Source: Microglena sp. YARC (taxonomy: Eukaryota > Chlorophyta > Chlorophyceae > Chlamydomonadales > Chlamydomonadaceae). From it: DNA of 64,000 bases. A program made the translations under genes and the position numbers. Position 1 is the stretch's first letter, and each line of letters starts with the position of its first letter. Positions 19,768 through 64,000 of this stretch are shown piece by piece. The notes under the pieces were generated by a model. It searched no databases. It saw only the letters and a list, made by a program, of their open reading frames with translations, and was not told the origin of the DNA. The DNA is taken from assembly GCA_022414725.1 (NCBI GenBank), contig CM039465.1, positions 1,732,593-1,796,592 of the forward strand, given 5' to 3'.

Positions 19768-22700
19768 GTGCCACATGCAATATACTACGAATCTCCAATC
19801 AGTTCCCACAAGCGCTTTCCAAATTTCCTTAAGCATTCCACTCTTGCCCAAGCTCGACGTGAGGCCCAGAAGCAGACCCTAATTGACCAAAAACCATGGG
19901 ACTGGAGAGCCTCTCCCCACACATGTCCCAAGCATGGCTGTATTTACTTAGACTACAAGCAACCACCCCTGGTTTTCCCAGAAGTTGCTGAAGCCATGGC
20001 AGCCCTACATCCTGAGCAGCACTTTGGGAATCCCTCCAGGTGAAGAGCTCTGTGCTTTTCTTGTTCATTGATGTTCAATCCCAGTCCCACTTGACTCCCG
20101 ACAAGCCGCATGCACATTGGGAATCCCTCCTTGGTGAAGAGCTCAGTGGCCATTCTTGTTAATTGTAGTTCATAAAGTCTCTCAACTTTGTGTCAGGACC
20201 GCGGGCACTCGATTTGGAGTCCAATAGGGCACCAGGAAGGGCTAGGGTTGATTGTATGTATGTTCCAGTACAGTTCATCATCATTATCGTCATTGTTTAT
20301 TCTACGAGCAGCAGCTTCTAGGCAGCTGCCCCTGACTGGCTAGAACCCACCGAAACACACGCGGGCTGGCTCAAGGGAGCTCCATAGAAGCTGCCAAATA
20401 AATCTGAAAATATAATTTATGTTTGCTTATGTAATAAACACCATTGTTGCAAGTTATCTTCTTTGCAGTGTGTGCTTTGAATTTGTAAGCCTATAGAAAG
20501 CGCTCGTGTGTCAAATTCTGAGCATGTTTTCTGTATGTGTATGATTGCTCAATAGCATATTATCGCTGTTCTGCAAAGCTGGTGTGTGTCTTTGGAACGG
20601 GCTCAAGCAGCGCCAGCTCTGATGTGGTCTCGCCTTTTAAAAAATGGCGAAAAAACTAAAATATTGAATGTTAGGGTTGGGCGCTATATCATATATGATG
20701 TTGACCAAGGGCGAGTTATGGTATCATGATATCAAAATATTGATACAAATTGCATCATATGATATTGTACATAAATGGTAACTTTAGCCTAGCGTCAGCC
20801 TGCCGGCATCAAGCATGAAATCATGTTGTTCCTCTACTAAATATTGAATGATGGTGATCACTCCCCACTTGCAGTGTTTTTTATTTCAGATTTCTGTAGG
20901 TTGAGTAGCTACTTGGGGCTACTCAATCCCTGATTTCAGATAGTTGCGTAGCCGTCGGCATGGCGGAGCGTGAAGCGCGGAGCCTGGGGGTGTCGGGGGA
21001 CAGCGCGTCCCGATATGGGGGTGTCCAGGGATGTAGCATTCTACGGCAATGGCGACGGAATGGCACGCGTTTCGTCGTCGAAAAATGAAACACGCCACAC
21101 TTGCCCTTAGTTCTTGTTGTGGCATATCTACGGATGCAACTGCAAAGCTGGTGTGTCTGGACAGGCTTAAGCAGCAGCCCTGATCAGCTTCTCCATGGGC
21201 CGTTTAAAAGATGTGCTAAAACAGTAAATGTGTATGTAAGATGATCAACCTACTTGGAGACTGACCACTCCCATCGCACTTTGTCCTGACTTCCTGTAGT
21301 GGTCATATCTCCATCCCCATGCGCAAAAAAATACCGAAATGTGAACGTGACTGATCACCCCCATTGTTCCTGTAGTGGTCACATCTTTGGACGCAACTGC
21401 AAAGCTGTGTTGTGGATCTTGGACGGCTAAGTAGCGGCTCTGATTGGCTCTCGTCCCCCAACGATGTGTACTCACCTTGGCGGTACAGAGGCAACAACTG
21501 GCCATATGGGGTCTCTGTGGCAATAGCAGCTTCGGCAGGATATCACACCCTGTAGTTGTGACACAGCGAAGCACCATTTGATGCATTCCTGCAACCACAT
21601 GTGGAGTCCTGCAAATGGCAATGGCTATAACACAATACGGAAGGACCCCCGACCTGTCACCCAAATTACACAATCACTACCTATACCAACGCTACATGCG
21701 CCAGTGCTGGAGTTCCTCAAGCACATGGATCAATAGGTAGGTCCTGCTGTTGCCTGGCATTTGGAGTTCCTCACGGTAACAAGGTTGAGGTTTGGCCTTG
21801 GTACGGGTTTTTGGTATGATTATGGTTTTGTTTCGGTTTGGTTCTATGGCTATAGCAGCTTCTGAAGGATGATGTGTATCGCATTCTCATGTTGTGACGT
21901 CGCAAATTGAACAATCCGCAGGCAGTTCGCTGGAAGCATCTCAAAGCACTTGATCACTAATGGTGAGATCCTTTGCGTGCCTGCTTTGGTAGGTGTGGTA
22001 TTGGTTAGGTATGGTTTTAGTATGTTTTGGTATGGTTAAAGTTTGGTATGGGTTTGGTGGGGTTATGGTATGATTTGGTGATGTTTTTGTTTGGTATAGT
22101 TTGGTGGTTGGTATGGTTTGGTATGGTTTGGTGTTGGGTTTTGTTTGGTTTGGTTTTTGGTTTGGTTTGTTTGGTTTGGTTGGTTTGGTTTGTTTGTTTG
22201 TTTGGTTTGGTTTGGTTTGGTTTTGGTTTGTCTATGGTATGTTGATGGGTTCGGTTTGGTATGGTATTGTTTAGGTATGGTAATGGTTTCTCATTACTAT
22301 AGATATATTTTGGTGTAGTTTGGTATGATTTGGTATAGTTTCAGTATGGCGTTGGTATGGTACAGATTGGTATGGGTTTGGTTTTTGTATGGTTTTGTTA
22401 TTTGTTTTGTGTGGTATGTTTTGGTAATGGTGTGGTAGAGTTTGGTATGGTGAGGTTTTTTTTTTTTTTTTTTTTAGTTTGGTTTTTGGGATTATTGGAT
22501 TTGGGTTTGGTTTGGTTTGGTATGGTGTGTTTTGGTATGTTATTAAGATTTGTGTGATATGTTTTTTGGTACGGTAAGGTTGTTGTTATGGTGCAGTATA
22601 CCAATTCGAACATCTGAATCAGATGTCCAGTTGGGTATACTGTCGATTATAACATAACGTGATTCCCATCAAGGCGTTACCCAGAGGTCCGGTTGCAAGG

Positions 22701-25700
22701 GGTTCAACTCAGTACGGGTGAAACAAGGGCCATTCTGTAACATTGACTGCCCGCTGTTCTTCCCGCTGAGACATATTGAACAGGAGCTATCTTGTTCAGT
22801 TTGTCGGGTTCGAACTGGTGCCGATGGGGAGTCACGTTATGTTGTAATCGGCACAGTTTACCAACCGGGACATCTGAATCAGGTTTAGAAATCTGAGTTT
22901 ATGTTTTCTAAACTTTAAACCCTAAACTGCCGATTACAACACTGGTTCGGTGTGGTTTGTTATGACATGTTTTCTATGTTTTGATTTGGTATGGTTCGGT
23001 CTGGTTTGGTTTCGGATGTTTTTGGATGGTTGGTATGGTTTGGTTTGGTTTGGTTTGGTTTGGTTTGGTTTGGCATGGTTGGCATGATATGGTTTGGTTT
23101 GGTTATTGGTTTTGGTATGGTTTGGGTTAGTTCGGTTTTATGGTATGGTTTGGTATGGTTGGGGTTAGTTCGGTGTGTGTATGGTTTTGGTATGGTTTGG
23201 GTATATGTTTAGTATGGTTGGCATGGTACAGTTTGGTTTTGTGTCGTGTCGGTATGTTTTGGTATAGTTTGGTATGTTTTGCCCCCCCCACTGCCCCCCA
23301 TTGCCCCCCCATTGCCCCCCACTACCCCCACTCAGGGGCTTCTGACGTGGACTGCTGGTGTCGGTGGATGAGGCAGGCCTTATTTGAATCCTGCTGCAGT
23401 GGAAGCATCCATCACACCTGCAACTGCTCTGGTCACCATCATGCACTCCAATAATGAGGTAGGCATTATCACTCATCAGTCATCACTCATCTTTCATCAC
23501 TCATCACACCTGCAACTGCTCTGGTCACCATCATGCACTCAAATAATGTGGGTATCATCACTCATCACTCATCACACCTGCAACTGCTCTTGTCACCATC
23601 AATACTCACCACTCATCACTCATCACTCATCACACCTGCAACTGCAACTGCTCTGGTCACCATCATGCACTCAAATAATGAGGTGGGTATCATCACTCAT
23701 CACTCATCACACCTGCAACTGCTCTTGTCACCATCAATACTTATCACTCATCACTCATCACACCTGCAACTGCAACTGCTCTGGTCGCCATCATGCACTC
23801 AAATAATGAGGTTGGTATCATCACTCATCACTCATCACACCTGCAACTGCAACTGCTCTTGTCACCATCAATACTCATCACCCATCACACCTGAAACTTC
23901 TCTGGTCACCATCATGCACTCCAATAATGAGGTGGGTAGGGGTATGTGTAGGGGTAGGGGTAGAGGGTACAGCCCATAGCATCATCATCATCATCATCAA
24001 TCATCATCATTCATCATCATCATCATTCATCATCATCATCATCATCATCATCTTCACCACCCACCACCACCACCACCACCACCACCATTACCACACCTGT
24101 CCAACTCCACCACCAACATCTAGCATCAGCATCAGCATCAGCATCAGCATCAGCATCAGCATCAGCATCAGCATCAGCATCAGCACCACCAGCACCACCA
24201 CCACCACCACCATCATCATCATCATTATCATCATCACCACCACCACCACCACCACCATCACCATCACCATCATCATCATCATCATCATCATCATAGCAAT
24301 ATATTGACATCTTCTGAAAGTAGTGTGTGGCTTCAAGTGTGAACCAATCCATTCCTACGCTGTTGTGGACGCAAGTAAGTTGGAAGCCTGCAGCCCATAT
24401 CAGATTTTGCGAAAGTTGTGTGTGGCTGCAAGTGTGAACCAATACCATCCTATGCTGTTCTGTACGCATGAAGGTTGGAAGCCTGCAACCCATAGCAGAT
24501 ATCGTGAAAATTGTGTTTGGCTGCAAGTGTGAACCAATACAATCCTATGCTGTTCTGTACGCATGTAGGTTGGAAGCCTACAGCCCATCGCAGGTATCGT
24601 GAAACTTGTGTGTGGCTCCAAGTGTGAATCCGACGAATCCTATGTTGTTCTGTACGCATTGTAGGTTGGGAAGCCTGCAACCCATATCAGATATTGCGGA
24701 AGTTGTGTGTGGCTGCAAGTGTGAACCAATCTTATGATGTTGTGGACGCATGAAGGTTGGAAGCTTGCAACGCATATCATCATCACCATCACCATCAGCA
24801 TTAGCATCAGCATCATCAATACAATCCTATGCTGTTCAGTACGCCTGTAGGTTGGAAGCTTACAACCCATTGCAGATATTGTGAAGGTTGTGTGTGGATG
24901 CAAGTGTGAACCAATCTTATGCTGTTCTGCACGCCTTTAGGTTGGAAGCCTGCTACCCATAGCAGATATCGTGAAACTTGTGTGTGGCTCCAAGTTTGTA
25001 CCAATTCTACGCTGTACTGTACACCTGTAGGTTGGAAGTCTGCAACCCATAGCAGATATCGTGAAGGTTGTGCGGCAGAAGGAAAAGGAGCAGCCAGGGA
25101 CAGGGGCAGGTGGGAGGCTCATAAATACATAAATAAATGCACAAGTAAATACATAAATAAATGCATACATAAATACATAAATACATAAATAAATGCACAA
25201 GTAAATACATAAATAAATGCATACATAAATACATAAGTACATAAATATATGCATAAATAAATACATAAATAAATACATAAATAAATACATAAATAAATGC
25301 ACAAGTAAATACATAAATAAATACATAAATTAGTATGTCAATAAATAGTACGCCTTATTATGAGGCATGAGGTTGAGGGGGCCAGGTTGTTTGCTTGCAT
25401 TGGGGCCATCCACCAATAGATGAGAGGCATACTTAATTATTATTTATCTTTTCAAAAAATTCAACTGAGGCCCCTGGTACTCACTGCCCAGAATAATTCA
25501 AATATTAAAATGATAAATTATCAAAATATTACTAAAATTCAACTGAAGTCCCTAGTACTCACTGCCCGGAAATATTTAAATACTAAAATATTAAAACAAA
25601 TCAGCTTAGGTCACTTAGCACAACGCTGCCCAGAAATAAGCCTTTATGTTACCCCCCTCCCCCCACACCCCCACACCCCCACCCCCACACCCAGACCCAC

Positions 25701-28700
25701 CCAGACCCACACCGACACACATACTCAGCCCAAGTGAGAGGCACATCTTTACCTTGTGATAATTTATCCTTTTGAACATTTAAACTTAGGTCACTAGTAC
25801 TCACTGCCCGGAAATAAGCTTTTATTTGCACACACCCACCCACCCACCCACTACCCACCACCACCACCACACACACCAAACCCCCCAGGAGAGAGCACAT
25901 CTTTGTGCACACAGACGCAGCCCCCCACCCCACCTCACCCCCACCCATCCCACCGACCGACCCACCCACCCCACACGCACACACACACCCCACACACCAC
26001 CACACACTCACACCGACCCCCAGGTGAAAAGGCACATCTTTGTGCACCATGGACGCAGCCCACGCACACACCCACCCACCCACCCCATCCCACCGACCCA
26101 CCCACCACCCACCCCACCCACCACCACACACACACACACCGACCCCCCCAGGTGCGAGGCACATCTTTGTGCACATGGACGCAGCCCACGCACGCACACA
26201 CACACCACCACCACCACACACACACACCGACCCCCTCCAGGTGAGAGGCACATCTATATTCACCGCCCCCCCCCCCCCCCCCCCCCCCCCCCCCGCCCCC
26301 CCCCCCCCACCACCACCACCACACACACACACACACACCGACCCCCCTCCAGGTGAGAGGCACATCTATATTCACCGCCCCCCCCCCACCACCACCACCA
26401 CCACCACCACACACACACACACACACCGACCCCCTCCAGGTGAGAGGCACATCTATATTCACCGCCCCCACCACCACCACCACCACCACCACCACCACCA
26501 CACCACCACTCACCACCACCACCACACACCGACCCCCTCCAGGTGAGAGGCACATCTATATTCCCCCCCCCCCCTTCCCCCCCCCCCCAGCACACACACA
26601 CCACCACCACCACACACACCACACCGGACCCCCCCCAGGTCAGAGGCACATCTTTGTGCACACGGACGCAGCCCAAAGCTTGGGCAAGGTCACAGTGTAT
26701 GTTGCAGAGCTGGGGGTGGACATGGCGACTGTGGTCGGCCACAAATTTGGAGCCCCTAAAGGAATTGGGGCTTTATACATCAGGTACTCTTTATATCTGT
26801 ACTTGTCATAGCTTTTCTTTTCCGCTACGAGCAGCAGCTTCTAGCCTAGTAGGCAGCTCATTGAGCCCTGTATTCTAGGTATTGTTAATAACTGTACTTG
26901 TCGTAGCTTTTCTTTTACGCTACGAGCAGCAGCTTCTAGCCTAGTAGGCAGCTCATCGAGCCCTGTATTCTAGGTATTGTTAATAACTGTACTTGTCATA
27001 GCTTTTCTTTTACGCTACGAGCAGCAGCTTCTAGCCTAGTAGGCAGCTCATTGAGCCCTGTATTCTAGGTATTGTTAATAACTGTACTTGTCATAGCTTT
27101 TCTTTTACGCTACGAGCAGCAGCTTCTAGCCTAGTAGGCAGCTCATTGAGCCCTGTATTCTAGGTATTGTTAGTATCTGTACTTGTCATAGCTTTTCTTT
27201 TCCGCTACGAGCAGCAGCTTCTAGCCTAGTAGGCAGCTCATTGAGCCCTGTATTCTAGGTATTGTTAGTATCTGTACTTGTCATAGCTTTTCTTTTACGC
27301 TACGAGCAGCAGCTTCTAGCCTAGTAGGCAGCTCATTGAGCCCTGTATTCTAGGTATTGTTAGTATCTGTACTTGTCATTTCTGCTATGAGCAGCAGTAT
27401 GCTGCTAGGCAGCCCAGCGAGCCTTGTATTTCAGAGACTCTTAATATCTGTACTTGTCATAGCCTTTGTTTTTTCGCTACGAACAGCAGCTTCTAGGCAG
27501 CTCAGTGAGCCTTGTACATCAGGTACTCTTTATATCTGTCCTTGTCATTTTCCGCTACGAGCAGCCGCTTCTAGGCAGCCCAGCGAGCCTTGTATTTTAG
27601 ATACTCTTAATATCTGTACTTGTCATAGCCATAGTTTTTTCGCTACGAACAGCAGCTTCTAGGCAGCTCAGTGAGCCTTGTACATCAGGTACTCTTTATA
27701 TCTGTCCTTGTCATTTTCCGCTACGAGCAGCCGCTTCTAGGCAGCCCAGCGAGCCTGTATTTTAGATACTCTTAAATATCTGTACTTGTCATAGCCTTAG
27801 TTTTTTCGCTTCACGAACAGCAGCTTCTAGGCAGCTTCAGTGAGCCTTGTACATCAGGTACTCTTTATATCTGGTCCTTGTCATTTTCCGCTACGAGCAG
27901 CCGCTTCTAGGCAGCCCAGCGAGCCTTGTATTTTAGATACTCTTAATATCTGTACTTGTCATAGCCTTAGTTTTTTCGCTACGAACAGCAGCTTCTAGGC
28001 AGCTCAGTGAGCCTTGTACATCAGGTTACTCTTTTATATCTGTCCTTGTCATTTTCCGCTACGAGCAGCCGCTTCTAGGCAGCCCAGCGAGCCTTGTATT
28101 TTAGATACTCTTAATATCTGTACTTGTCATAGCCTTAGTTTTTTCGCTACGAACAGCAGCTTCTAGGCAGCTCAGTGAGCCTTGTACATCAGGTACTCTT
28201 TATATCTGTCCTTGTCATTTTCCGCTACGAGCAGCCGCTTCTAGGCAGCCCAGCGAGCCTTGTATTTTAGATACTCTTAATATCTGTACTTGTCATAGCC
28301 TTAGTTTTTTCGCTACGAACAGCAGCTTCTAGGCAGCTCAGTGAGCCTTTGTACATCAGGTACTTTTATATCTGTCCTTGTCATTTTCCGCTACGAGCAG
28401 CCGCTTCTAGGCAGCCCAGCGAGCCTTGTATTTTAGATACTCTTAATATCTGTACTTGTCATAGCCTTAGTTTTTTCGCTACGAACAGCAGCTTCTAGGC
28501 AGCTCAGTGAGCCTTGTACATCAGGTACTCTTTATATCTGTCCTTGTCATTTTCCGCTACGAGCAGCCGCTTCTAGGCAGCCCAGCGAGCCTTGTATTTT
28601 AGATACTCTTAATATCTGTACTTGTCATAGCCTTAGTTTTTTCGCTACGAACAGCAGCTTCTAGGCAGCTCAGTGAGCCTTGTACATAGGTACTCTTTAT

Positions 28701-51500: not shown

Positions 51501-53523
51501 CACATCTGTGATTTGGCCTCTTTAAACAACATCATGGCAGCAGGGTACTTCCAAGCGCGCGCTTTTGCGTCCCACTGCACATTTCACGCAGATTTTTGCA
51601 ACCTCCTCTAGGCGCAGCAAGCAATTTTCGCGCTTTTTGCACTACAAAGCACAGATTTGTTTTTCCAAGTGAGCTAAAGCGCTGGCCAATTTGGTCAATG
51701 GAAGTACCCTGCATGGCAGGAGATCCTGGAACTCCTGCGGTAATTCCTTGATTTCACATGATTTCACTGATTCATTTAGACATACATGAACTGTGTTTTG
51801 GCCTCTTCAAACGAAATTATGGCAGGACATCCTGCTTTGCCTGTGTGTGCACAAGAAATTAGAGGTTGCAATGAGGCGGAAGACTACATCTGTGGTTTGG
51901 CCTCTTCAAACGACATCATGGCAGGAGATCCTGCCGTGCCTGTGTGTGCACAAGAAATTAAAGGTTGGAATAAGGCGGAAAATTACATCTGTGGTTTGGC
52001 CTCTTCAAACGACATCATGGCAGGAGATCCTGCCGTGCCTGTGTGTGCACAAGAAATTAAAGGTTGGAATAAGGCGGAAAATTACATTTGTGGTTTGGCC
52101 TCTTCAAACGACATCATGGCAGGAGATCCTGCCGTGCCTGTGTGTGCACAAGAAATTAAAGGTTGGAATAAGGCGGAAAATTACATCTGTGCTTTGGCCT
52201 CTTCAAACGACATCATGGCAGGAGATCCTGCCGTGCCTGTGTGTGCACAAGAAATTAAAGGTTGGAATAAGGCGGAAAATTACATCTGTGGTTTGGCCTC
52301 TTCAAACGACATCATGGCAGGAGATCCTGTAATTCCTGCCGTAATTCCTTGATTTCACGTGATTTCACTGATTCATTTAAACATACATGAACTGTGTTTT
52401 GGCCTCTTCAAACGACATCATGGCAGGAGATCCTGGATCTCCTGCCATGATTTCTTGATTAGCGGAGCCCCCACTTCACCCCGATGTCCGTTTGACCGAC
52501 GACTGTGAGACTGACACGAAGCCTGACACGAAGCCAACTGTCTTGTAACTAACTGGCTTTGGCCAGCTCTATTCTGTTGCCACCTACGGTGACTATAGCT
52601 AGCTCCGGCTTACGCTATGGTGTCCTTAACTTCACGTCCTGTGAGTGAATGTATTACACGGATGTAACAATTCCAATTTCAATTTCTGTTGCCACCTGTC
52701 GCTTCGATAAAACTCTCCGCCAATTGTTCGCATCGCGCTGCCTAGGACTTTCACGTGATTTTAGTGATTCACTTGAACATACATTTGAGTAGCTTGCATA
52801 GACTAAAGGAGCTCCCCAGCAGCAGCAACACCCCATCCACCCTCACCTGCTCCAATGCGTATATCGTAGTATTAATAACACTTCTAAACTCACTTGCGCC
52901 AGTTCAGTATGATTAGCCGAGGCAACAGCCATGTGGGTAGCTTGCAGAGACTGAAGGAACCCCCAGCAGCAGCAACACCCCATCCACCCTCACCTGCTCC
53001 GATATGTATCTCAGCATTTAATAGCACCACAAAACTCACCCGCACCAGTTTCGTATGATTAACGGAGCAACCCATCCACCCTCACCTGCTCCAATATATA
53101 CCGTTGCATTAAATAGCACTACTAAACTCACATGCAACAGTTCGGTATGATTAGCCGAGGCAACGGCCATGTGAGTAGCTTGCAGAGACTGAAGGAGCTC
53201 CTTGGCAGCAGCAACTTTTCGCTCAGATGACTGGACGCTGATGTCAAGCTCACTCAACATCTGCTCTGAGCTTGCGACCTGGAGCAGGTGTACAAATTCA
53301 AATGCCAAGTCTAGTAAAAAAAACACAATGATAAAGCCTGGTGAGGCATGGTATTAAGGGAGCCCCGTCTTACGGCGGTAGGGAAAGGGCAGCTACTACT
53401 TTACCTGGACAAAGCTAACATGGCGGTTGACAGCGACCGCGAACACTTAAGCGCACCTGTGGGGATTCGAACTTTCTCGCAGCAGCATGGAGCTCCTAGT
53501 AGCCTTTCAGGTGCCTATAGGCT

Positions 53524-53698: not shown

Positions 53699-53729
<31 letters not shown>

Positions 53730-53887: not shown

Positions 53888-53918
<31 letters not shown>

Positions 53919-56900
53919 CATCGAATCGAAAACGAAGATTTTTTAATTTTCGTTTGAAGGGATTCCTCCCCCGAAAATGTGGCGAGACAACAAAAATGTC
54001 GGTTGAGACAACAACAAAAATGTTCTCCAAATCGCATTTTTACTGCACATTCGGATTCCTTGTGAAATTCTATGACATGTAGCACTAAGGAAATGATGCT
54101 TGGCACACATATAAGCATAGTAAATTGCGATGCAAAATACGAAAAGACCTGGGGAAAAAATAGATTCTAGAAGCGTTGTTTTACGGTGTTGGGCGCAAAA
54201 CTAAGCCTCTAGGAGAAAATTGGGGTATTCACAGTGTACTTCACATAGCAATTATACATGGTATGTACTCAGGTCACATTTTCATGAGCACATCTGAGCA
54301 TCGCAATTGAAGAAACAAAAGCCAGCTATTGGTTGCTTGGGCCAAAAAGCTTCAAGTGACTGGTAATAATTAGATCCAAGGGTGCCGTAAGCTACTATTG
54401 CAGATGTGAAGCATCCAAACATGTGCGCAAGCATGTGTTTGGGAATATAATTGTTCTTAAACACATCCATTTGGAAACATCAGAGCTACACAATCCGCAA
54501 AAACTATAAATGGCACTAAGGCATTTTCCTCCACTTGGCTCACTCACCAAAAAGTCAAAATCGTGAATAGAGAGCAGAACAAACTTTTGCAAATTGGTTT
54601 GCAAATTGTTTTGCAAATTGTTTTGCATATTGCTTTGCATACTGCTTTGCAAATTTTTGCAAATTGTTTTGCAAATTGTTTTGCAAATTGTTTTGCCCCA
54701 AAACTCAATTGAAGTATAAATTCGGACTCTTTAAGAAATTCTATGATACTATGCACTCATTTGATGCTGTTTGGCCAACACATAAGCATAGCAAATTGTG
54801 ATAAAAAGTACGTAATTCTAACGCCCGGTGAGGCATGGTATTAAGGGAGCCCCGTTTTACAGCGGCAGGGAAAGGGCTGCTACATTACCTGGACAAAGCT
54901 TACATGGCATTTGACAGCGACCGCGAACACTTAAGCGCACCCGTGGGGATTCGAACTTTCTCGCAGCAGCATGGAGCTCCTAGTAGCCTTTCAAGTGCCA
55001 ATAGGCTCCCCCCCCCCCCCCCGCCCCCCCCCCCCCCCCCCCCCCCCCAAAAAAAAAGGGGGGCAATTTCCTTCCAAGAATACCCTGGGCCATTCTTTTA
55101 CCATCCATTCCCATTCTAAACATTCCCAACCAGCTATTTCTTGGGCGCACCTTTGAATTTTTGAACTTGAATTCCAAGGAATTTTGAAATCCTGTGATTT
55201 TTACTCTTTCTGGATTCTGGGCGATTGGTGCCAAAACCAATACTGCGATGAGTTGTTGTTGTTGTTGGGGGGGGGGGGGGCAATTTTCATTACAAAATAC
55301 CCTGGGCCATTCATACACCATCCATTCCCATGTGCTCACTACTATGAATCATATCACCGTATGCAGGATAGTATCTAGACCCAAGACAAGTCCACACAAG
55401 GTCCTGGGCTGGGTTGACGAACCCAGACATTTCCTGGACCCCATGCCATCCATTCTCTACCACGCCGTCCACTCCCCTGCTGGTCATTCCTACACAATCC
55501 ATTCCCATTCTAGACATTCTCAACCAGCTACTCCTTCTGCGCACCTGAGCTTCCAGGGAACGAAGGTTTGCCTCCTGTTTTGAAATTTCTGCCTCAAGCG
55601 TGGCCATCATCATTGATGGGGTTTGGGTCTCTACCGCCTACGAGGAGAGACGATGGTGGTGGTGATGATAGCAGTAATGATGGTTACAACAGAGAAAATC
55701 TCCGAAACAGGCTGGACACACCCCCACCCCCTTTATGGGGAGGTCGAGATCTACCCCCCCCACCCCCCACCACACACACACATTTGTTCAACTTGTTTCG
55801 ATGGTTTGCGCAAGCCCTACCCTGAGACTCCCCCACCCCGCCCCCCTTCGGGCAACCTACCCCAATCGCTACCATGAGCCCAACCTTGAAAAACATCAAA
55901 TCCCTGGTCGTTAGCAGAAGCCCCCCTATCTGAAATGAAAAAAAGCTCTGCCACACCTGGGTCTGTACCGGGACTTGCAGCTCCAAAAGTCGGCCAAACC
56001 TTCTGCTCCCCTACCCGGCCCCGCCCCCTTCGGGCAACCTTACCCAATCGCTACCAGGAGCCCAACCTTGAAAGACACAAAATCCGTGGTAGCTACCAGA
56101 AGCCCCCCTTTCTGAAACGGAAAAAAGCTCTGCCACACCTGTGTCTGTACCGGGACTTGCAGCTCCAAAAGTTGTGCCTGCAGATCCTTGATTAGTGCCT
56201 CCAGTTTCCCGATTTCGCGTTCATGTTGCACGCTTGAGCTCCGCTCCCTCACCTCCGCTGCTTGGGATGCTTCCAGCCGTGCCGATAACTCCTCTACCAT
56301 CATGTCAGCTACCTTGCACTGCTCCTTTGTAGCTGAGAACTGCCTGTCAGCTACATCAGCTCGTTGCTCGGCCTCCTTGATGGCCAAGGCATTACTCCTT
56401 AACTTGGCCACGAGATCGTGCATGCGTTCTTCTGCACGCTCTACTTCCACCTGTGGGACCAAGGGAGGCGATGAAGATGGTGGTGGTGGTGATGCTGATG
56501 ATGGTGTTGGTGATGGTGTTGGTAGTGGTGATGATGATGGTGCTGTTGGTGATGGTGTTGGTGATAATGGTGGTGGTGGTGGTGACGCTGGTGGTGGCAC
56601 TGCTCTTTAACTTGTCCACAAGATCCTGCATGCGTTCTTCTGCCCGCTCAACTTCTCCCTTTGGGACCACAGGAGTTGATGATGATAGTGTTGTTGACGA
56701 TGGCGGTGATGTTGTTAATGATGATGGTGGTGATGGTGGTGTTGGTGCTGTTGGTGGTCATGCTCCTTAACTTGGCCACAAGATCGTGCATGCGTTCTTC
56801 TGCACACTCTACTTCCGCCTGTGGGACCAAGGGAGGTGATGGTGTTGTTGTTGGTGATGCTGATGTTGGTGTTGGTGATGGTGTTGGTAGTGGTGATGAT

Positions 56901-59900
56901 GCTGGTGCTGTTGGTGATGATGCTGGTGCTGTTGGTGATGATGCTGGTGCTGTTGGTGATGGTGGTGTTGGTGCTGTTAGTGGTGGTGATGCTGGTGGTG
57001 GTGATGCTCCTTAACTTGGCCATAAGATCTTGCATGCGTTCTGTTGCCCGCTTTACTTCCACCTGTGGGACAAAGGAAGGTGCTGATGCTGATGCTGATG
57101 TTGTTGTTGGTTGTGGTAGTGCTTATGATGTTGGTGCTGATGTTGGTGCTGATGATGTTGTTGGTGATGGTGATGTTGGTGATGATGGTAGTGGTGCTGA
57201 TGATGGTGGTGGTGCTGATGATGGTGCTGGTGATGGTAGTGCTGATGATGGTGGTGGTGTTGGTGATGGTGGTGATGGTAAGTTTGGTGAAGATAATGAT
57301 GGTGATTATGATGATGGGGCTGTCGATGATGATGGGAGGTTTATCACATGCAGGTTGAGGTTTATCACATGAAGGTTGAGGAAGCAAAAACGTTACTGAA
57401 ATCAGCTGTGCTAGGAGAATTGAAGGGTTGAAGCCGGGCAGCACATGCGGGCCATACATGCGGACAGTACATGCGGGCAGTAAATGCGGGCAGCACATGA
57501 GGGCGGCACAAGAGGGCAGTACATACTGGCAGCTCATGAGGGTAGTACATGTGGGCAGCACATGTGGGTAGTACATGTGGGCAGCACATGAGGGCAGTAC
57601 ATGCGGCAGCGCATGAGGGGACCTCCCGACACATTGTGCTCAGGAGATAATCTCTGCATACACCACCACCACCATATTCACACACACTACCACCACTACC
57701 ACCACCACACACACCACCACTACCACCACCACACACACCACTACTACCACTACCACCACCACCACACACACCACCACCATTACCACACACACCACCAATT
57801 CAACCACCACCACACATTAGGGAACCTACCGACACACTCTGCTCAGCAAATGATCTCTGTTGTATTTGCTTTTGAAGCGCAGACAGCTCGGTCTCCAACT
57901 GGGCATTCCTGCATTTGGACAAGAGAAGAGTAATATGAGAAAAGGTCACTTCAGATGTGGTAAGTGTTTAATGTGTTAAGTGCTTATGGTACTGTCGACA
58001 TGCCCTTGAACACCCCAGCAGCAAAGTGTAAATGTGTGGAGATGCGGTTGGGTATGTTGCCTGCGCACCTTGCCATCAACCTTCTGACCTTTCTTCATAC
58101 CGACTCCTGCTGCTGCATCACCCCAGCGGACTCAGCGTCATGCTCTCACAGACCACATTCAAATCATATGTTCAAACACAAACGCCAAGTCCAGTTTACG
58201 CCAAGTATTAATGTGTGAAGATGCGATTGGGTATGTTGTCTGTGCACCTGGTCATCAACCTTCCGACCTTTCTCCCTTATGACCCCAGCTGCTACACCAC
58301 CACAGCAGACTCAGCGTCATGCTCTCACAAGCCCCGTTCAAATCATACATACATATACATACAAGTGAACGCCCAAGTAATAATGTGTGTAGACGCAATT
58401 GCGCGTGTTGTTTGCGCAGCTGGCCATCAACCTTCCGACCTCTCTCCCTAACAACCCTAGCTGCTGCACCCCAGCGGACTCAGCGCAAAGGCCAAGTATG
58501 AAAATGTGAAGATTAAATTGGGTTTGTTGTCTGCGCACCTGGCCATCAGCCATCCGACCTCTCTTCCTAACGACGCTACCTGCTGCACCACCCCAGCAGA
58601 CACAGAGTCATGCTCCTCACAGAGCACATTCAAATCATTTGTATAAATACAAACGCCAAGTCCAGTTTACGCCAAGTATTAATGTGTGAAGATGCGATTG
58701 GGTATGTTGTTTGCGCACCTGGCCATCAACCTTCCGACCTCTCTCCCTAACAACACTAGCTGCTGCACCACCCCAGCAGACTCAGAGTCATGCTCCTCAC
58801 AGACCGCATTCAGCTGGTCTGCCTGTGCCTTGGCAACCTCTGCAGCTCCTCTCAGCTCCTTCAACTGATCCTCAGCACTCGAGAGTCTCTCCCTCTCTGC
58901 CCGGACCTCATCAAGTGCTTTTACAGTCTTCACAGCTTCGACCTGCTGGGGGGGGGGGGGGGGGGGGGGGGGGGGTCCTAAGTTACAGACGGAGAATCTA
59001 GGGTTACGGGGTGGCCTGTTAGGGGTTAATACGGGTGTGGGGTGTGGGGTGTGTGGGGGAGAGGGGGTCCTAAGCCAACAACCAATAAACAAGGTAGAAA
59101 TAGATAACCACCACCACACCACACCACCACCACACACTACTAAAGAGAAACGAACAGCACCTGCTCATTCTCTTTAGCCACAGCCAGCTTCTGCTCCAGC
59201 TCGGCCACCTGCTGCTCTAGCAGCCACTCCCTCTCTCTCTGAACGCCAACTACAACTAAACAAGGTATAAATACATAATCACCACCACCACCACCACACA
59301 CACAACTCAAAGAGAAATCAACAGCACCTGCTCATTCTCTTTAGCCACAGCCAGCTTCTGCTCCAGCTCGGCCACCTGCTGCTCCAGCAGTGACTCCCGC
59401 TCTCTATGCGCAGCACCACGGGAATGCAGCTCAGCCTCCACGGCCACCGCTCGCTGCTGCCCCGCGTCCAACTCAGCCAGTGCTTGAGTAAGGCCTGCCT
59501 CCCTCTCCTCCAGCTGCCTGCCCGCTCGAGCAAGGCCTGCCTCCTTCTCCTCTAGCTCCCTGCGCAGCTCCCCAAGCTTTCCTTCTAGCTCTGAATAGCG
59601 TTCCTGGAGCCTGGCCAGCTCCTCCCTGGTAGCTTCCAGTGCTGACCCACTCTGTGCACTTGATTCACTTGCACAAGCTACCAGACTGGCCTTCTCAACC
59701 TCGTGCACCCGCACTATCTCAGCCCTGCTTGCTTGGGACTCCACTACCGCAGCTTGCAGCTCAACTGACAGGAGACCAGCTCGCTCTCTTAGCCCCACCT
59801 GATGATTTAGAAAGGGTAAGTTCTGAGGGTGCTTTTGCGAGATTTTGCAAATTCCAGGCAATTGATGACGACAGCGACGACGACGATGATTATGATGATG

Positions 59901-61234
59901 ATGATGATGTTTGGGACTAAACTACTGAGGCTTGCAGATAAACTGACAGGAGACCAGCTCGCTCTCTTAGCCCCACCTGTTGATATAATAAGGGTAAGTT
60001 CTGATGGTGACTTCGCAAGAAGTTGGAATTCCAGACATTTGATGACGATGATGATGATGATGATGATGATGATGATAATGATGATGATTGGGACTCTACT
60101 ACCGCAGCTTGAAGCTCAACTGACAGTAGACCAGCTCGCTCCCTTAGCCCCACCTGATGATTTAGTAAGGGCAAGTTTTGAGGGTGCTTTTGCGAGATTT
60201 TGCAAAATCCAGGCATTTGATGACGACAGCGACGACGACCATGATTATGATTATGATGATGATGTTTGGGACTAAACTACCGAGGCTTGCAGATAAACTG
60301 ACAGGAGACCAGCTCGCTCCCTTAGCCCCACCTGTTGATTTAGAAAGGGTAAGTTCTGAGGGTGATTTTGTGAGATCTTGAAAATTCCAGACATTTAATG
60401 ACGACGATGACGATGCTTGTGACTCTACTACCGCAGCTTTTTGATAAACTGACAGGAGACCAGCTCGCTCTCTTAGCCCCACCTGTTGATTTAGTAAGGG
60501 TAAGTTCTGAGGGTGCTTTTGTGAGATTTTGATAATTCCAGACATTTGATGATGCAACGATGACGACGACGATGATCATGATGATGTTTGGGAATCCACT
60601 ACTGAGGCTTGCAGCTGAACTGACAGGAGACCAGCTCGCTCCCTTAGCCCCACCTGATGATTTAGTAAGGGCAAGTTTTGAGGGTGCTTTTGCGAGATTT
60701 TGCAAAATCCAGGCATTTGATGACGACGGCGATGACGACGGTGACAATAATGATGATGATGTTTGGGACTCCACTACCGAGGCTTGCAGATGAACTGACA
60801 GGAGACCAGCTCGCTCTCTTAGCCCCACCTGTTGATTTAGTAAGGGTAAGTTCTGAGGGTGATTTTGTGAGATCTTGATAATTCCAGACATTTGATGACG
60901 ACGGCGACCACGACGACAATGATGATGATGATGATGTTTGGGACTAAACTACCAAGGCTTGCAGATAAACTGACAGGAGACCAGCTCGCTCTCTTAGCCC
61001 CACCTGTTGATTTAGTGAGGGTAAGTTCAGAGGGTGATTTTGTGAGATCTTGAAAATTCCAGACATTTAATGACGACGATGATGATGCTTGTGACTCTAC
61101 TACCGCAGCTTTTTGACAAACTGACAGGAGACCAGCTCGCTCTCTTAGCCCCACCTGTTGATTTAGTGAGGGTAAGTTCTGAGGGTGATTTTGTGAGATC
61201 TTGATAATTCCAGACATTTGATGACGACGGCGAC

Positions 61235-61268
<34 letters not shown>

Positions 61269-63546
61269 CTTGGGACTCTACCACCGCAGCTTGCAGCTCC
61301 ACTGACAGGAGACCAGCTTGCTCCCTTAGCCCCACCTGTTGATTTAGTAAGGGTAACTTCTGAGGGGGATTTTGCTTGGCCTTAAAAGCCTCCCACCCCA
61401 CCCCCACCCAAAACCCCCATTCGCACAAACACAACCACACCAACTAAAGCACCCCTCCCCAACATCCGCCAGCTTAGCCTTTAATATTTATAAATCGAAT
61501 TATAAAAATAAAATGAATCTGCTGCATCACACCTGCTCCTCCCTCACATCTGCTAGCTCAGCCTTTTTTAATTTAATTATTAAATAGTATAATTAATAAA
61601 TAAATATGCCCCCCCCCCCCCCCCCCCCCCCCTCACCCTCCACACACACACCTGCCAACCTAGCCTTAATGTTATTAATTGAAGTATACAATGAATAATA
61701 AATCAATCTGCCGCACCCCACCTGCTCCTCCCTCACATCTGCCAGCTCAGCCTTTAACGCCCCAACCTGCTCTGACAGGATGCGGATCTTCTCTGTTGAC
61801 ATGTTGACCCCAGCTTCTGCTTCGCTGCAACGTTCAGACATTGCAGAGTAGCGGGACTCGTAGCGCATCACTGATTCAGATAACTCAGATATGACCACCT
61901 CCTTGGAATCTGTTATCTGCGTTTGCACATCCTGGTACATGGTGCAGGCAAGGTGGAAGTGGGCAAGGTGGATTAGGCGTGGGCAAGGTTGTGGGCAAGG
62001 AGGATGAAACAAATGAGTCGTGGGCAAGGTGGATGAGGCCAAGGCAAAGTTGTGGGCAAGGTGGATGAAACAAATTTGTCTTGGGCAAGGTGGATGAGGC
62101 CAAGGCAAAAATGTGGGCAAGGTGGATGAAACAAATTTGTCTTGGGCAAGGTGGATGAGGCCAGGGCAAGGTTGTGGGCAAGGTGGATGGAACAAATGAG
62201 TTGGAAACATTGTGTTGAGGAGATAGCCCATCACTGAGCCAGACAAGTCAGATATGAGCACCTCCTTGTAATGTGTTATCTGTGTTGGCACATCCTGGGA
62301 CATAGCGTGGGCAAGGTGGATAAAAAATGAGTTGCGGAAATTGGATTGAGGAGTTAAGACACATAGTGCGGCCCTGTGCCAGACAACTCAGATATGAGCA
62401 CCTCCTTGGAATTTGATATCTGTGTTTGCACATCCTGGGACATGGCGTGGGCAAGGTGGGCGTAGGCAAGGTGGATGAAAAAAAGGAGAGGCAAACAGTG
62501 AATTGAGGAGCTAAGGCACATAGCGCAGCACTGATCCAGGCAACTCATATATGACCACCTCCTTGGAATCTGTTATCTGTGTTGGCACATCCTGGGACAT
62601 GGCGTGGGCAAGCTGGACGTGGGCAAGGTGAGTGTGGGCAAGGTGGATAAAACAAATGAATTGTGGGCAAGGTGGATTAAGCAAATGAGTAGAACATTGA
62701 GTTGAGGAGTTAAGACACATAGTGCTTCACTGAGCCAGACAACTCAGACATGAGCACCTCCTTTGAATATATTATCTGTGTTTGCACATCCTGGGACATG
62801 GAATAAGAGTGGGTGTGAGAGGCGTGGGCGCGGTGGCTAAAACAAGAGTGGTGTGGGCAAGGTGGATTAAGCAAACGAGTTGCAAACATTCAGTTGAGGA
62901 GTTAAGACACATAGCCCATCACTGAGCCAGACAACTCAGATATGAGCACTTCCTTGGAATATGATATCTGTGTTTGCAGATCCTGGGACAAGAAAGAGGG
63001 GCAGGTGTGTGGGGTCCATAGGTGTGTGGGTTGGGGGGCTGGGTTGGGAGGGGTGGAGGTGTTTGTGGGTGGAAGAGATGGTGGGGTTGGGGTTAGGTTA
63101 GGTATGTGTGTGTGGGTGTGGAAGGGATGGGGGGTTAGGGGTTAGGTTGTGGAAGGGATGGGGGGTGAGGGAGGTGTGTGGGGTCTGTGGGTGGAAGGGT
63201 TCGAGGGGGCTGGGTTTGGACAAGTGGAGGTGTGTGTGTGTGGAAGGGTTGGGGGTTTGAAGGGGGGAGGTGTGTGTGGGGGGTCTGTGGGTGGAAGGGT
63301 TGGATTGGATTTGGTTTGGTTTGGTTTGGTTGGGGTTGGGGTTGGGGGGGGGGGGGGGGGGGGGAGAGGGTGAGTAGGGTGATAGGGTCTGTGGGGTCTG
63401 TATGATGGTGTTTGTAGGGTGAGCAGGAAGAGGGAGTGTGGGAAAGGTGGACTCAAGCTATGATTTTCACACATTTTACTATGGGAATCACAATGACGGA
63501 GAAGGTAGAGGTAGTGTGTGTGTGGGAAGGGAGGGAGGGAGGGAGG

Positions 63547-63643
<97 letters not shown>

Positions 63644-63989
63644 AGAGAGAGGGAAAGAGATGTGATATGGCTTACTGTACTTTCTCTATAATAGGGTTGA
63701 CTAGATGACTTATTCCTAATGTTATTTTTGCGTTTTTGATTACTGTGTGGCTAGACCGCAATTCAAGAGAGAGACGTACAAGTTCAGACTGCAGTTGACA
63801 GACCTCTGAGTGAAGTTTGCACCTTGTCAATACAGATTTGGCAAAATAATTAAATGAACTGACAGGCCTTGCCCAACTTCAATCAATCATGGCGGGGGAA
63901 ATTAAACAAGAAATAAAGTCAAACAAAAACAGGAACAAAGACTCACTAGTTCAGATTGCAGTTGACAAACCTCTGAGTGCAGTTTGCAC
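45505..63989 (-). CDS. Long coiled-coil protein, ten exons, 5' incomplete
   Basis: Exons by splice sites and phase: 63,989-63,947; 61,931-61,722; 59,798-59,328; 58,942-58,719; 57,908-57,830; 56,450-56,139; 55,637-55,545; 53,278-53,132; 49,399-48,952; 47,261-45,505. All junctions agree in phase, including two split codons (58,719/57,908 and 48,952/47,261), giving about 1,260 residues. The first nine exons are almost entirely heptad-type coiled coil (e.g. ELQAAVVESQASRAEIVRV; KALDEVRAERERLSSAEDQL; ERAEERMHDLVAKLRS). The last exon leaves the coiled coil for low-complexity Ser/Gly/Ala-rich sequence with two internal repeats and a basic tail (MAKKVRAANAGGREK). No motor, enzyme or membrane segment is visible. 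A structural or scaffold role is likely; I do not recognise the family. The 5' exons lie beyond 64,000. Confidence 0.8.
46105..46260 (-). repeat. In-frame 39-48 nt coding repeat (ASSSACRGASGAG)
   Basis: Three near-perfect copies in the last coiled-coil exon encode ASSSACRGASGAG, followed by variants of SLGGASGTSG (46,050-46,100). Nucleotide identity is very high, so the expansion is recent. Confidence 0.9.
46640..46860 (-). repeat. In-frame ~45-nt coding repeat (QHRSVEQRSSAVD)
   Basis: Five to six copies of a 15-residue unit, GQHRSVEQRSSAVDx, in the last exon of the coiled-coil gene, with position-specific changes between copies. Confidence 0.9.
47262..48030 (-). repeat. Acceptor echoes of the last coiled-coil exon, grading into a minisatellite
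   Basis: The exon start (+ strand GACTCCAAA, AGCTCCCTCAAAGCTTCAGC, TGCATGG) recurs at 47,385-47,435 and 47,508-47,555, and GCGGGCAGAAGCATA at 47,340 and 47,468. From 47,570 the array becomes TGCATGGGGGTTGGGTTGG units. Confidence 0.8.
48100..48195 (+). repeat. 32-bp tandem repeat, three copies
   Basis: GATTGGAGCAGCAAATATTG plus TTATGCTACAGA, three near-identical copies. Confidence 0.9.
49400..52445 (-). repeat. About 24 tandem acceptor echoes of one coiled-coil exon
   Basis: On the minus strand each unit holds CACACAG|GCACGGCAAGAGCT followed by 30-70 bases of the exon (encoding ARQELQDLNMSFEEA or variants), then diverges. Period ~100-130 bases. Sub-blocks differ: 49,400-50,480 keeps the longest exon pieces, 50,580-51,400 carries GGTCCCTCCAAACGACACATGG variants, and 51,840-52,330 holds five nearly identical 98-99-bp units. 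Confidence 0.9.
51540..51712. mobile_element. MITE copy 2 with TIR and target-site duplication
   Basis: GCAGGGTACTTCCA at the left end is exactly inverted at the right end (TGGAAGTACCCTGC). Flanked by ATGGCA at 51,534-51,539 and 51,713-51,718. The pre-insertion sequence would read CATCATGGCAGGAGATCC, the normal echo unit, so it inserted into the array. Confidence 0.85.
52586..52683 (+). mobile_element. ~100-bp retroposon, copy 2
   Basis: 98 bases starting ACGGTG and ending in a short AATTTC-type tail. Flanked by a perfect 14-base duplication, TTCTGTTGCCACCT, at 52,572-52,585 and 52,684-52,697. It interrupts the dispersed repeat at 52,466-52,760. No tRNA-type promoter boxes seen. Confidence 0.85.
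52770..53131 (-). repeat. Donor echoes of coiled-coil exon 53,132-53,278
   Basis: The + strand words AAACTCAC, then AGTTCRGTATGATTAGC and GTGGGTAGCTTGCAGAGACTG, which cover the exon end and donor, recur at about 52,888-52,965, 53,034-53,068 and (short) 52,790-52,830, separated by CCCATCCACCCTCACCTGCTCC linkers. Confidence 0.85.
53337..53475 (-). mobile_element. tRNA-related SINE, copy 4
   Basis: Minus strand: AAAGTTCGAATCCCC (B box), CTTAAGTGTTCGCGGTCGCTG, CCGCCATGTTAGCTTTGTCC, GGGGCTCCCTTAATACCATG. The A-box half is missing. Fragments of the same element lie at 53,600-53,645 and 53,775-53,820. Confidence 0.65.
53476..53930 (+). repeat. ~190-bp tandem units with long C runs and SINE ends
   Basis: Three units of GCAGCAGCATGGAGCTCC, CTATAGGCTC, a C run of ~20-30, AAACATCGAATCGAAAA, and a SINE fragment. 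A fourth lies at 54,958-55,070. Confidence 0.85.
54590..54700 (+). repeat. (TTTTGCAAATTG)n minisatellite
   Basis: About nine 12-base units with few changes. Confidence 0.9.
54828..54958 (-). mobile_element. tRNA-related SINE, copy 5
   Basis: Almost the same layout as copy 4 (minus strand B box, CTTAAGTGTTCGCGGTCGCTG, GGGGCTCCCTTAATACCATGCC), joined to the C-run unit. Confidence 0.65.
55075..55544 (-). repeat. Donor-side echoes of coiled-coil exon 55,545-55,637
   Basis: + strand words CCATCCATTCCCATTCTA, ACATTC, CAACCAGCTA and GCGCACCT (the donor region at 55,495-55,546) recur at 55,100-55,152, and the first word also at 55,318 and 55,448. Confidence 0.75.
55900..56138 (-). repeat. Donor echo of coiled-coil exon 56,139-56,450
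   Basis: AGAAGCCCCCCT, CTGAAA, AAAAAGCTCTGCCACACCTG and TCTGTACCGGGACTTGCAGC at 55,915-55,985 repeat the true donor edge at 56,098-56,165; the flank GGCAACCTNCCCAATCGCTAC repeats as well. Confidence 0.85.
56451..57075 (-). repeat. Acceptor echoes of coiled-coil exon 56,139-56,450
   Basis: Copies near 56,600-56,665, 56,760-56,830 and 57,005-57,070 keep CTTAACTTGGCCACAAGATC, GCATGCGTTCT and the acceptor CTGTGGGAC, encoding variants of EVERAEERMHDLVAKLRS. Linkers are (GGTGAT)n tracts extending to 57,340. Confidence 0.9.
57430..57610 (+). repeat. ~15-bp minisatellite (GGGCAGTACATG)
   Basis: About 12 units of GGGCAGYACATG plus 2-4 bases. Confidence 0.9.
57660..57815 (+). repeat. (CACCACTAC)n microsatellite
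   Basis: CACCAC/CACTAC/ACACAC mixture between the minisatellite and the exon at 57,830. Confidence 0.9.
58000..58718 (-). repeat. Donor echoes of coiled-coil exon 58,719-58,942
   Basis: + strand segments covering the exon end (TGCGCACCTGGCCATCAACC, TTCCGACCTCTC, CCAGCAGACTCAGAGTCATG) recur at about 58,040-58,170, 58,235-58,345, 58,405-58,490 and 58,530-58,630 before the true edge at 58,711. Period ~150-180. Confidence 0.9.
58948..59155 (+). repeat. Long G run and TGGGG-rich linker
   Basis: About 25-27 G's after the exon start, then GGGTTAGGGGT-like words and a CACCAC tract. No gene seen. Confidence 0.85.
59156..59327 (-). repeat. Donor echo of coiled-coil exon 59,328-59,798
   Basis: AGCACCTGCTCATTCTCTTT and about 70 more bases of the exon end are repeated at 59,156-59,230 with few changes, then a CACCAC linker leads to the true donor. 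Confidence 0.9.
59799..61360 (-). repeat. Acceptor echoes of coiled-coil exon 59,328-59,798 with (GAT)n
   Basis: About eight further copies, near 59,990, 60,150, 60,330, 60,490, 60,655, 60,830, 61,010-61,165 and 61,340, each with the acceptor CAACAG or CATCAG|GTGGGGCTAAG, then the codons of LRERAGLLSV and an ELQAAVVESQ-like part, then (GATGAC)n. Period ~160-180. Confidence 0.9.
61450..61721 (-). repeat. Donor echoes of coiled-coil exon 61,722-61,931
   Basis: The + strand words CACCTGCTCCTCCCTCACAT and CTGCYAGCTCAGCCTTTAA recur at 61,530-61,570; shorter forms at 61,465 and 61,650. A C run of ~20 separates them. Confidence 0.85.
61932..62990 (-). repeat. Acceptor echoes of coiled-coil exon 61,722-61,931
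   Basis: Copies near 62,225-62,300, 62,370-62,440, 62,530-62,600, 62,715-62,800 and 62,915-62,990 encode DVQTQITDSKEVVISEL and variants with the acceptor CAG|GATGTG; linkers are GGGCAAGGTGGATGA units. Confidence 0.9.
63000..63470 (+). repeat. G/T-rich linker with GTGGAAGGG units
   Basis: GGGTGTGTGGGGTC and GTGGGTGGAAGGGTT words repeated irregularly, with a G run at 63,340-63,365. Confidence 0.8.
63548..63642 (+). repeat. (GA)n microsatellite
   Basis: About 45 uninterrupted GA units. Confidence 0.97.
63780..63822 (-). repeat. Second copy of the 43-nt coiled-coil exon
   Basis: Identical length to the exon at 63,947-63,989 and nearly identical sequence (CKLHSEVCQLQSEL), with AG before it and GTACGT after it. 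It has a weaker pyrimidine tract. Confidence 0.75.
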
Positions 63990-64000
63990 CTGATGTCATC

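What the first reader, a model, noticed from the sequence alone, without database searches (positions are those of the whole stretch)
19768..64000. Exon echoes: nearly every exon is flanked by tandem copies of its own splice-site edge
In three unrelated host genes, on both strands, introns are filled with arrays whose unit is a piece of the adjacent exon plus its splice site: lyase exon 1 (donor side), MHSNNE exon (donor), VGSLQP mini-exon (whole), HTDAAQ exon (both sides), GGGQ exon (both sides), last exon (acceptor); DUF3119 exons at 40,894, 39,433 and 35,600; coiled-coil exons at 63,989, 61,931/61,722, 59,798/59,328, 58,719, 56,450/56,139, 55,545, 53,132, 49,399 and 47,261. Copies decay with distance and grade into minisatellites. 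I know of no described genome where this is the rule. It suggests a local duplication process focused on exon-intron junctions, possibly driving intron growth and supplying decoy or alternative splice sites.
Basis: seen in the sequence. Interest (0 to 1): 0.95.

Follow-up and report, generated by a model that had tools for sequence, protein, structure and literature searches.

The report
Tandem copies of exon edges
In this alga-like genome about half of exon edges tested have extra, mostly untranslatable tandem copies of themselves in the neighbouring intron, apparently because the whole genome keeps duplicating short stretches side by side; the same structures were described earlier in lancelets as "mirages".

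Summary
In the window 28 of 36 exon edges have a same-strand copy of themselves nearby, 23 of 36 spanning the splice junction. It recurs elsewhere: in eight chaperonin loci, 21 of 42 edges have copies (17 junction-spanning), all 61 copies in the adjacent intron. An HSP70 gene shows it too.

Junction windows carry spanning copies no more often than other intron positions (17/42 vs 487/1024, p 0.43) or arbitrary genome positions (585/1352, p 0.75). Counted by repeat family there is an excess at edges: strong in the window (24/36 vs 9.6 expected), modest in the second sample (23/51 vs 15.0, p 0.013).

Best reading: genome-wide tandem duplication of short stretches (nearest copy a median 173 nt away). 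Duplications crossing a splice junction are tolerated if the outermost splice site is used; selection removes those that break exons. The same structures are known in amphioxus as "mirages" (PMC3087553, PMC3902484), so "no described genome" fails for the kind; the frequency and the lineage are the new part.

The parts
20010..20172 (+). cysteine desulfurase exon 1 donor edge (20039) and one downstream copy
   Evidence: score 69, spans junction
21100..21440 (+). exon-2-like segment ([11 protein letters not shown]; edges uncertain) and one degenerate copy
23400..23940 (+). MHSNNE exon donor edge (23458) and downstream array (7 copies)
24300..25070 (+). [12 protein letters not shown] mini-exon (25031-25066) and upstream array (6 copies, most of them of the whole exon)
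25858..26670 (+). HTDAAQ exon acceptor edge (26644) and upstream array (7 copies)
26770..30010 (+). HTDAAQ exon donor edge (26783) and downstream array (28 copies; only 2-14 nt of exon in each)
30170..31290 (+). GGGQ exon acceptor edge (31201) and upstream array (6 copies)
31330..32750 (+). GGGQ exon donor edge (31396) and downstream array (5 copies, 62-65 nt of exon)
33187..33560 (+). last cysteine desulfurase exon acceptor edge (33482) and one upstream copy
35590..35910 (-). DUF3119 last exon acceptor (35600) with 23-nt minisatellite upstream; weak echo, not junction-spanning
39350..39615 (-). DUF3119 exon 2 acceptor edge (39433) and one upstream copy; a partial paralogue at C4:18.8 Mb has three occurrences of this head
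40646..40960 (-). DUF3119 exon 1 donor edge (40894) and one downstream copy
47170..48020 (-). coiled-coil last exon acceptor edge (47261) and two upstream copies
49320..52430 (-). coiled-coil exon 9 acceptor edge (49399) and upstream array (24 copies, spacing mostly 98-144 nt)
52820..53220 (-). coiled-coil exon 8 donor edge (53132) and 2-3 downstream copies
55050..55550 (-). coiled-coil exon 7 donor edge (55545), weak non-spanning echo
55840..56170 (-). coiled-coil exon 6 donor edge (56139) and one downstream copy
56380..57100 (-). coiled-coil exon 6 acceptor edge (56450) and three upstream copies
57612..57860 (-). coiled-coil exon 5 donor edge (57830) and one downstream copy
58020..58820 (-). 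coiled-coil exon 4 donor edge (58719) and four downstream copies
59122..59410 (-). coiled-coil exon 3 donor edge (59328) and one downstream copy (167-nt offset, 96% of it alignable)
59730..61380 (-). coiled-coil exon 3 acceptor edge (59798) and nine upstream copies
61504..61750 (-). coiled-coil exon 2 donor edge (61722) and one downstream copy
61850..63010 (-). coiled-coil exon 2 acceptor edge (61931) and five upstream copies
63770..64000 (-). coiled-coil exon 1 donor edge (63947) and one downstream copy; the exon runs off the window end

Best explanation
These are 'mirage' minisatellites: tandem duplications that span a splice junction, in a genome where short tandem duplication is pervasive. 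Shown: copies are same-strand, local, in the adjacent intron, at about half of the edges clearly head-to-tail, and mostly frame-broken; this recurs at unrelated loci on several chromosomes; junctions carry spanning copies about as often as arbitrary positions. Inferred: a general process (replication slippage or unequal exchange) duplicates stretches of the order of 100-200 nt anywhere. A duplication crossing a donor or acceptor is nearly neutral because splicing the first donor to the last acceptor still gives the normal message, so the inner copies become intron and drift. Duplications inside exons survive only in frame. Repetition lengthens introns and leaves them full of exon-edge copies.
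For: Second sample: 21/42 edges with a copy, 61/61 copies on the intron side. Position parity: edges 17/42 vs introns 487/1024 (p 0.43) and 14 arbitrary loci 585/1352 (p 0.75; 488/1254 without the all-satellite locus L028). Local-repeat coverage of nine gene loci (median 0.32) equals that of 14 arbitrary loci (0.325), p 1.0. Nearest copy lies a median 173 nt away; at 22 of 46 edges >=80% of that distance is itself alignable, i.e. head-to-tail. 36 of 43 indels in the exon part of copies break the frame, whereas changes private to the real exon favour third positions (8/5/17, p 0.018), so the outer copy is the coding one. In the long last coding exon (45,505-47,261) all six listed tandem-repeat rows have periods divisible by 3 (21, 36, 42, 21, 69, 48; one row lies inside another), as a selection filter predicts. 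Exon interiors have fewer spanning copies (38/287) than edges (17/42, p 6e-5). Precedent in amphioxus, where regular splicing is reported for the cases studied.
Against: Family-level counts show edges over-represented: 24/36 vs 9.6 +/- 2.4 in the window and 23/51 vs 15.0 +/- 3.1 (p 0.013) in the second sample, so a mild junction preference is not excluded. In the window any-copy rates are 28/36 at edges vs 0.66 in introns. In the window introns (spanning 0.61) are far richer than other stretches tested: retroelement 0/360, intergenic 0/45 and 1/62, upstream region 0.12 of 320, unassigned region 0.18 of 170, which a strictly uniform process would not predict; the arbitrary loci may themselves hold introns. 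Copy-private differences are also uneven over codon positions (58/36/61 distinct alleles, p 0.02). At 8 of 46 edges less than half of the inter-copy distance is alignable and at 16 only 50-80%. P-values treat neighbouring positions and related copies as independent.
Confidence: 0.72

Rival explanations
1. A duplication process is aimed at exon-intron junctions (for example R-loops, splicing-coupled breaks or chromatin at exon edges), so that exon edges seed most arrays.
For: 24 of 36 local-repeat families touch an exon edge vs 9.6 expected (0 of 500 placements; short families 13/24 vs 3.5); 23 of 51 vs 15.0 in the second sample (p 0.013); edge-touching families hold 15.2 of 19.0 kb of family bases in the window (stricter edge rule, 21 of 36 families) and 14.9 of 24.3 kb in the sample.
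Against: Position-wise parity with introns and arbitrary loci. Exon depth of copies ranges from a few nt to 80 nt, the limit of the query, with no fixed breakpoint at the junction. Arrays that fill an intron must end at exons, which inflates the family count; short families in the second sample are not significant (9/30 vs 5.8, p 0.083).
Confidence: 0.15
2. The introns were born by tandem duplication of exon segments containing AG|GT (the Rogers model), so each intron starts as a copy of exon.
For: DUF3119 intron 1 starts with the same 11 nt (GTTTGTCTTTG) as the next exon. The amphioxus globin authors propose a related route.
Against: Over 18 window introns the first 12 nt match the downstream exon no better than shuffled pairs (3.94 vs 3.71, p 0.24); 21 chaperonin introns 3.86 vs 3.84, p 0.50. 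The matching test of the last 12 nt against the upstream exon is also negative (p 0.75 and 0.30).
Confidence: 0.05
3. The copies are functional: alternative or decoy splice sites kept by selection.
For: 119 of 145 copies keep the canonical dinucleotide and 72 of 145 score at least as high as the real site.
Against: Real sites are stronger on average by 2.6 bits (41 families, 28 positive, p 1e-4; biased because the model was trained on real sites). 36 of 43 exon-part indels are frame-breaking. The intron part of copies differs about as much as the exon part (9.6% vs 11.0%).
Confidence: 0.05
4. Assembly artefact: arrays made by mis-joined or duplicated reads.
For: The window and some fetched loci hold N gaps; no reads were available.
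Against: Copies are diverged (73-96% identical), occur at loci on contigs C1 to C5, and a partial DUF3119 paralogue carries three occurrences of an exon head where the window carries two.
Confidence: 0.03

Closest known systems
Amphioxus 'mirages' (Adh3, TnC, globins BflGb6 and BflGb9, PGBD5): minisatellite-like tandem duplications spanning exon-intron boundaries (PMC3087553 section 16 read, other passages; PMC3902484 one passage; the original Adh paper is not held)
   Same: Units contain intron end plus exon start, or exon end plus intron start; both donor and acceptor sides; unit lengths reported from 10 to 160 bp; many copies keep AG/GT; copies 81-100% identical in BflGb6; the regular exon stays intact.
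   Different: Reported there for a handful of genes in a chordate, with length differences between haplotypes and mRNA data suggesting regular splicing. Here a 568-Mb green-algal-type genome, half of the tested exon edges in a second sample (21/42), and up to 28 copies; no RNA or polymorphism data.
Intron gain by tandem duplication of AGGT-containing exon segments (Rogers model, seen as cited in PMC3087553; potato RdRp case PMC4974935, listing and start of abstract only)
   Same: Tandem duplication across splice-site sequence.
   Different: The predicted intron-start/downstream-exon match shows no overall excess in the 39 introns tested; here existing introns appear to be lengthened.
Ordinary intronic minisatellites
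   Same: Tandem, local, variable unit length, grading into simple repeats.
   Different: Here the unit often includes coding exon sequence and a splice site.

Membership tests
mirage minisatellite | tandem repeat unit spans an exon-intron boundary | tested here: met
   23/36 window edges and 17/42 edges of the second sample have junction-spanning copies
mirage minisatellite | both 5' and 3' exon boundaries can be duplicated | tested here: met
   acceptor and donor families both present
mirage minisatellite | copies in tandem in the adjacent intron, authentic exon intact | tested here: met
   61/61 copies on the intron side; >=80% of the inter-copy distance alignable at 22 of 46 edges, less at the other 24; the ten coiled-coil exons form one open frame. 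The desulfurase gene is an exception: exons 2-3 carry stops or frameshifts
mirage minisatellite | regular splicing of the mRNA despite duplicated splice sites | not testable with these tools
   no RNA data
mirage minisatellite | length polymorphism or instability between alleles | tested here: inconclusive
   only a paralogue comparison: DUF3119 exon 2 head twice in the window, three times at C4:18.8 Mb
intron gain by AGGT tandem duplication | intron 5' end repeats downstream exon 5' end; intron 3' end repeats upstream exon 3' end | tested here: not met
   p 0.24 and 0.75 (18 introns); p 0.50 and 0.30 (21 introns); one intron with an 11-nt match
   position-wise no; family-wise excess 24/36 vs 9.6 and 23/51 vs 15.0

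The most novel reading that the evidence does not exclude
In this lineage intron growth proceeds largely by repeated duplication of exon edges with a real preference for splice junctions, and the spliceosome copes by an outermost-pair rule (first donor, last acceptor) that ignores many equally strong internal splice sites at many introns.
Probability: 0.15. Interest if true: 0.85.

Novelty: new member of a known kind. Interest (0 to 1): 0.5.

Why it matters
It carries a curiosity known from a few lancelet genes to a green-algal-type genome where half of the exon edges in a second sample show it. That makes two open questions testable at scale: how introns lengthen, and how splicing picks one authentic site among many local duplicates, half of which score at least as well (72 of 145). 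It also warns that homology searches in such genomes can return repeated partial exons, which may mislead automatic gene models.

Tried and rejected
AGGT intron-birth signature: tested on 18 and 21 introns, no overall excess. Copies as coding alternative exons: rejected on frame-breaking indels. General decay with distance: not found. Junction focus: position-wise not found; family-wise an excess remains. One search aligned overlapping blocks and is void; one search replaces it. One search used a wrong frame for the MHSNNE exon (corrected). An earlier exon-end test on the chaperonin loci used raw domain-match ends, including gene ends: 26 of 84 ends, 5 of 24 exon middles, 332 of 652 intron windows; the refined test is. 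Species: no named near relative; retroelement gag hits carry uninformative labels. A recalled guess, Cymbomonas, was looked up (PMC5741210 passages) and left open.

Selection and rows dropped: 8 of the 12 clusters of two or more chaperonin matches were fetched, chosen for compactness under a letter limit. For one of them, L030, the match table already showed a repeated segment before I chose it; without L030 the counts are 16 of 34 edges with a copy and 12 of 34 spanning. 21 of 25 consecutive exon pairs tried were used (splice score 8 or more); L034 gave no usable intron, so the 42 edges come from seven loci. L037 (HSP70) was read exon by exon and is not in the counts. Three window edges rest on weak homology.

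Literature limits: searches answered were made; timed out and one search was malformed, so absence of mirages outside lancelets from print is not claimed.
Full report
Setting. The window is C4:1,732,593-1,796,592 of a 568-Mb, 2390-contig genome. No species name is available. Of 120 cysteine desulfurase hits listed, the best named ones are green algae (Trebouxia, Micractinium, Scenedesmus); haptophytes, brown algae and bacteria follow and many are unnamed. The finding covers three genes: a cysteine desulfurase on the plus strand (Aminotran_5, E 1e-28 for its last three exons joined), a DUF3119 gene on the minus strand (E 2.8e-33), and a coiled-coil gene on the minus strand with no family above cut-off in the 530 residues scanned. 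The coiled-coil gene's ten predicted exons join into one 1264-residue frame ending at a stop, which supports its splice edges. The desulfurase model is incomplete: the stretch matching residues about 98-180 of a Trebouxia homologue is found only as weak pieces interrupted by stops or frameshifts around 21,374-21,493 and 23,333-23,400 (sequence), so its exon 2 and 3 edges are uncertain.

Observation. With 80-nt windows centred on each edge, 28 of 36 edges have a same-strand copy within 4 kb and 23 of 36 a copy crossing the junction by at least 12 nt on both sides; without three uncertain edges, 25 and 21 of 33. The best score against reversed sequence was 47, below the threshold of 50. A longer query found 120 copies at 24 of 36 edges, 73-96% identical, most reaching 2-80 nt into the exon. 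Exon ends that face an intron score >=30 in that intron in 22 of 36 cases; far ends of exons of at least 130 nt in 0 of 22.

Is it more than chance? Against reversed sequence, clearly yes. Against the right control, other sequence of the same genome, mostly no. In the window, 0.61 of 1168 intron positions away from exons pass the same junction-spanning test, against 23/36 edges (p 0.86). For any copy the rates are 0.66 and 28/36. By repeat family the picture differs: of 36 local-repeat families in the three genes, 24 touch an exon edge, where random placement that avoids exon cores expects 9.6 +/- 2.4 (0 of 500); without low-complexity masking 21 of 34 vs 11.0. Part of that excess is forced, since arrays that fill an intron must end at exons, and the window was chosen because it looks striking.

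Second sample. Chaperonin genes (PF00118) were located by homology and eight of twelve match clusters, on C1-C5, were fetched; for one of them (L030) the match table had already shown a repeated segment. Splice sites were inferred for 21 well-supported introns in seven loci. 21 of 42 edges have a copy, 17 of 42 a junction-spanning one, and all 61 copies lie on the intron side; without L030, 16 and 12 of 34. Intron background in the eight loci is 538/1024 and 487/1024; exon interiors 54/287 and 38/287. Fourteen loci at round coordinates give 585/1352 spanning positions (488/1254 without the all-satellite L028), and their local-repeat coverage (median 0.325) equals that of nine gene loci (0.32, p 1.0); these loci may contain introns of their own. 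Family-level excess in the sample is 23/51 vs 15.0 (p 0.013) and 25/66 edges covered vs 17.2 (p 0.017); short families 9/30 vs 5.8 (p 0.083). In an HSP70 gene the domain search itself reports one exon head three times in a row (model positions 465-495, 466-496, 466-530), and reading the locus shows copies at several further edges.

Anatomy. The nearest copy lies a median 173 nt from the edge; at 22 of 46 edges at least 80% of that distance is itself alignable, as expected of head-to-tail duplication; 16 lie between 50 and 80%, and 8 below 50%. Copies are mostly not coding: 36 of 43 indels in their exon part break the frame. The outer copy, continuous with the exon body, is the coding one: in families of four or more copies, sites where the exon differs from the copy consensus fall 8/5/17 on codon positions (p 0.018); copy-private alleles are milder but not flat, 58/36/61 (p 0.02); families under four copies 29/28/46 mismatches (p 0.05). 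Within the long last coiled-coil exon (45,505-47,261) all six tandem-repeat rows have periods divisible by three (one row lies inside another). So duplications also occur inside coding sequence and look filtered for frame.

Splice sites in copies. 77 of 88 acceptor and 42 of 57 donor copies keep the canonical dinucleotide; 72 of 145 copies score at least as high as the real site; real sites are stronger by 2.6 bits on average (41 families, p 1e-4), a comparison biased towards the real sites because they trained the model. If the gene models are right, splicing must pair the first donor with the last acceptor past many plausible sites. Whether it does is untested.

Mechanism. The economical account is pervasive short tandem duplication plus selection. 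A duplication crossing a donor or acceptor leaves an intact outer edge, so it is tolerated; one inside an exon survives only in frame; one inside an intron is free. This predicts edge frequency near background, copies on the intron side, frame-broken copies and in-frame repeats inside exons, all of which are seen. It does not by itself explain why other stretches tested in the window are poorer in repeats (intergenic 0/45 and 1/62, retroelement 0/360, upstream 0.12 of 320, unassigned 0.18 of 170), nor the residual family-level excess. All p-values treat neighbouring positions and related copies as independent and are approximate.

Known kind. [quoted passage not shown] PMC3902484, one passage). 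The classic intron-birth signature discussed there was tested and not found overall in 39 introns, with one suggestive 11-nt match in DUF3119 intron 1.

Verdict. Observation confirmed; junction focus not supported as the general explanation; filed as a new member of a known kind. Interest is moderate because of its frequency and because it makes splice-site choice among local duplicates testable.

Noticed in passing
window 20,040-26,640: The cysteine desulfurase model has only weak, interrupted matches to residues about 98-180 of its homologues (stop near 21,420, stop and frame changes at 23,333-23,400): possibly a decaying gene, undetected exons or local assembly errors.
   Followed up: partly
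L009 with L010 and L011 (C4:18,792,000-18,821,999): A partial DUF3119 paralogue has exon 1 (87% identical DNA) and three occurrences of the exon 2 head, but no clear match to the exon 2 body or exons 3-4 in the 30 kb searched: an apparent pseudogene fragment that kept its echoes.
   Followed up: partly
window 45,505-47,261: Tandem repeats inside the last coding exon of the coiled-coil gene all have periods divisible by three (21, 36, 42, 21, 69, 48).
   Followed up: yes
window 39,434 and 40,894: DUF3119 intron 1 begins with the same 11 nt (GTTTGTCTTTG) as exon 2, the one intron that fits birth by tandem duplication.
   Followed up: partly
window about 800-9,100: ORFs of a retroelement; the first ORF matches eleven unnamed database proteins, best local identity 86% over a third of its length. 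Domain identity (reverse transcriptase-like, Ty3 type) is by eye and recall only.
   Followed up: no
L028 (C6:10,000,001-10,010,000): The whole 10 kb is local tandem repeat (coverage 1.00, GC 0.38): satellite-like, perhaps centromeric.
   Followed up: no
25 window and 21 chaperonin edges: The nearest-copy offset is mostly 90-210 nt (median 173), close to a nucleosome repeat length (recalled); not compared with intron-only repeats.
   Followed up: no
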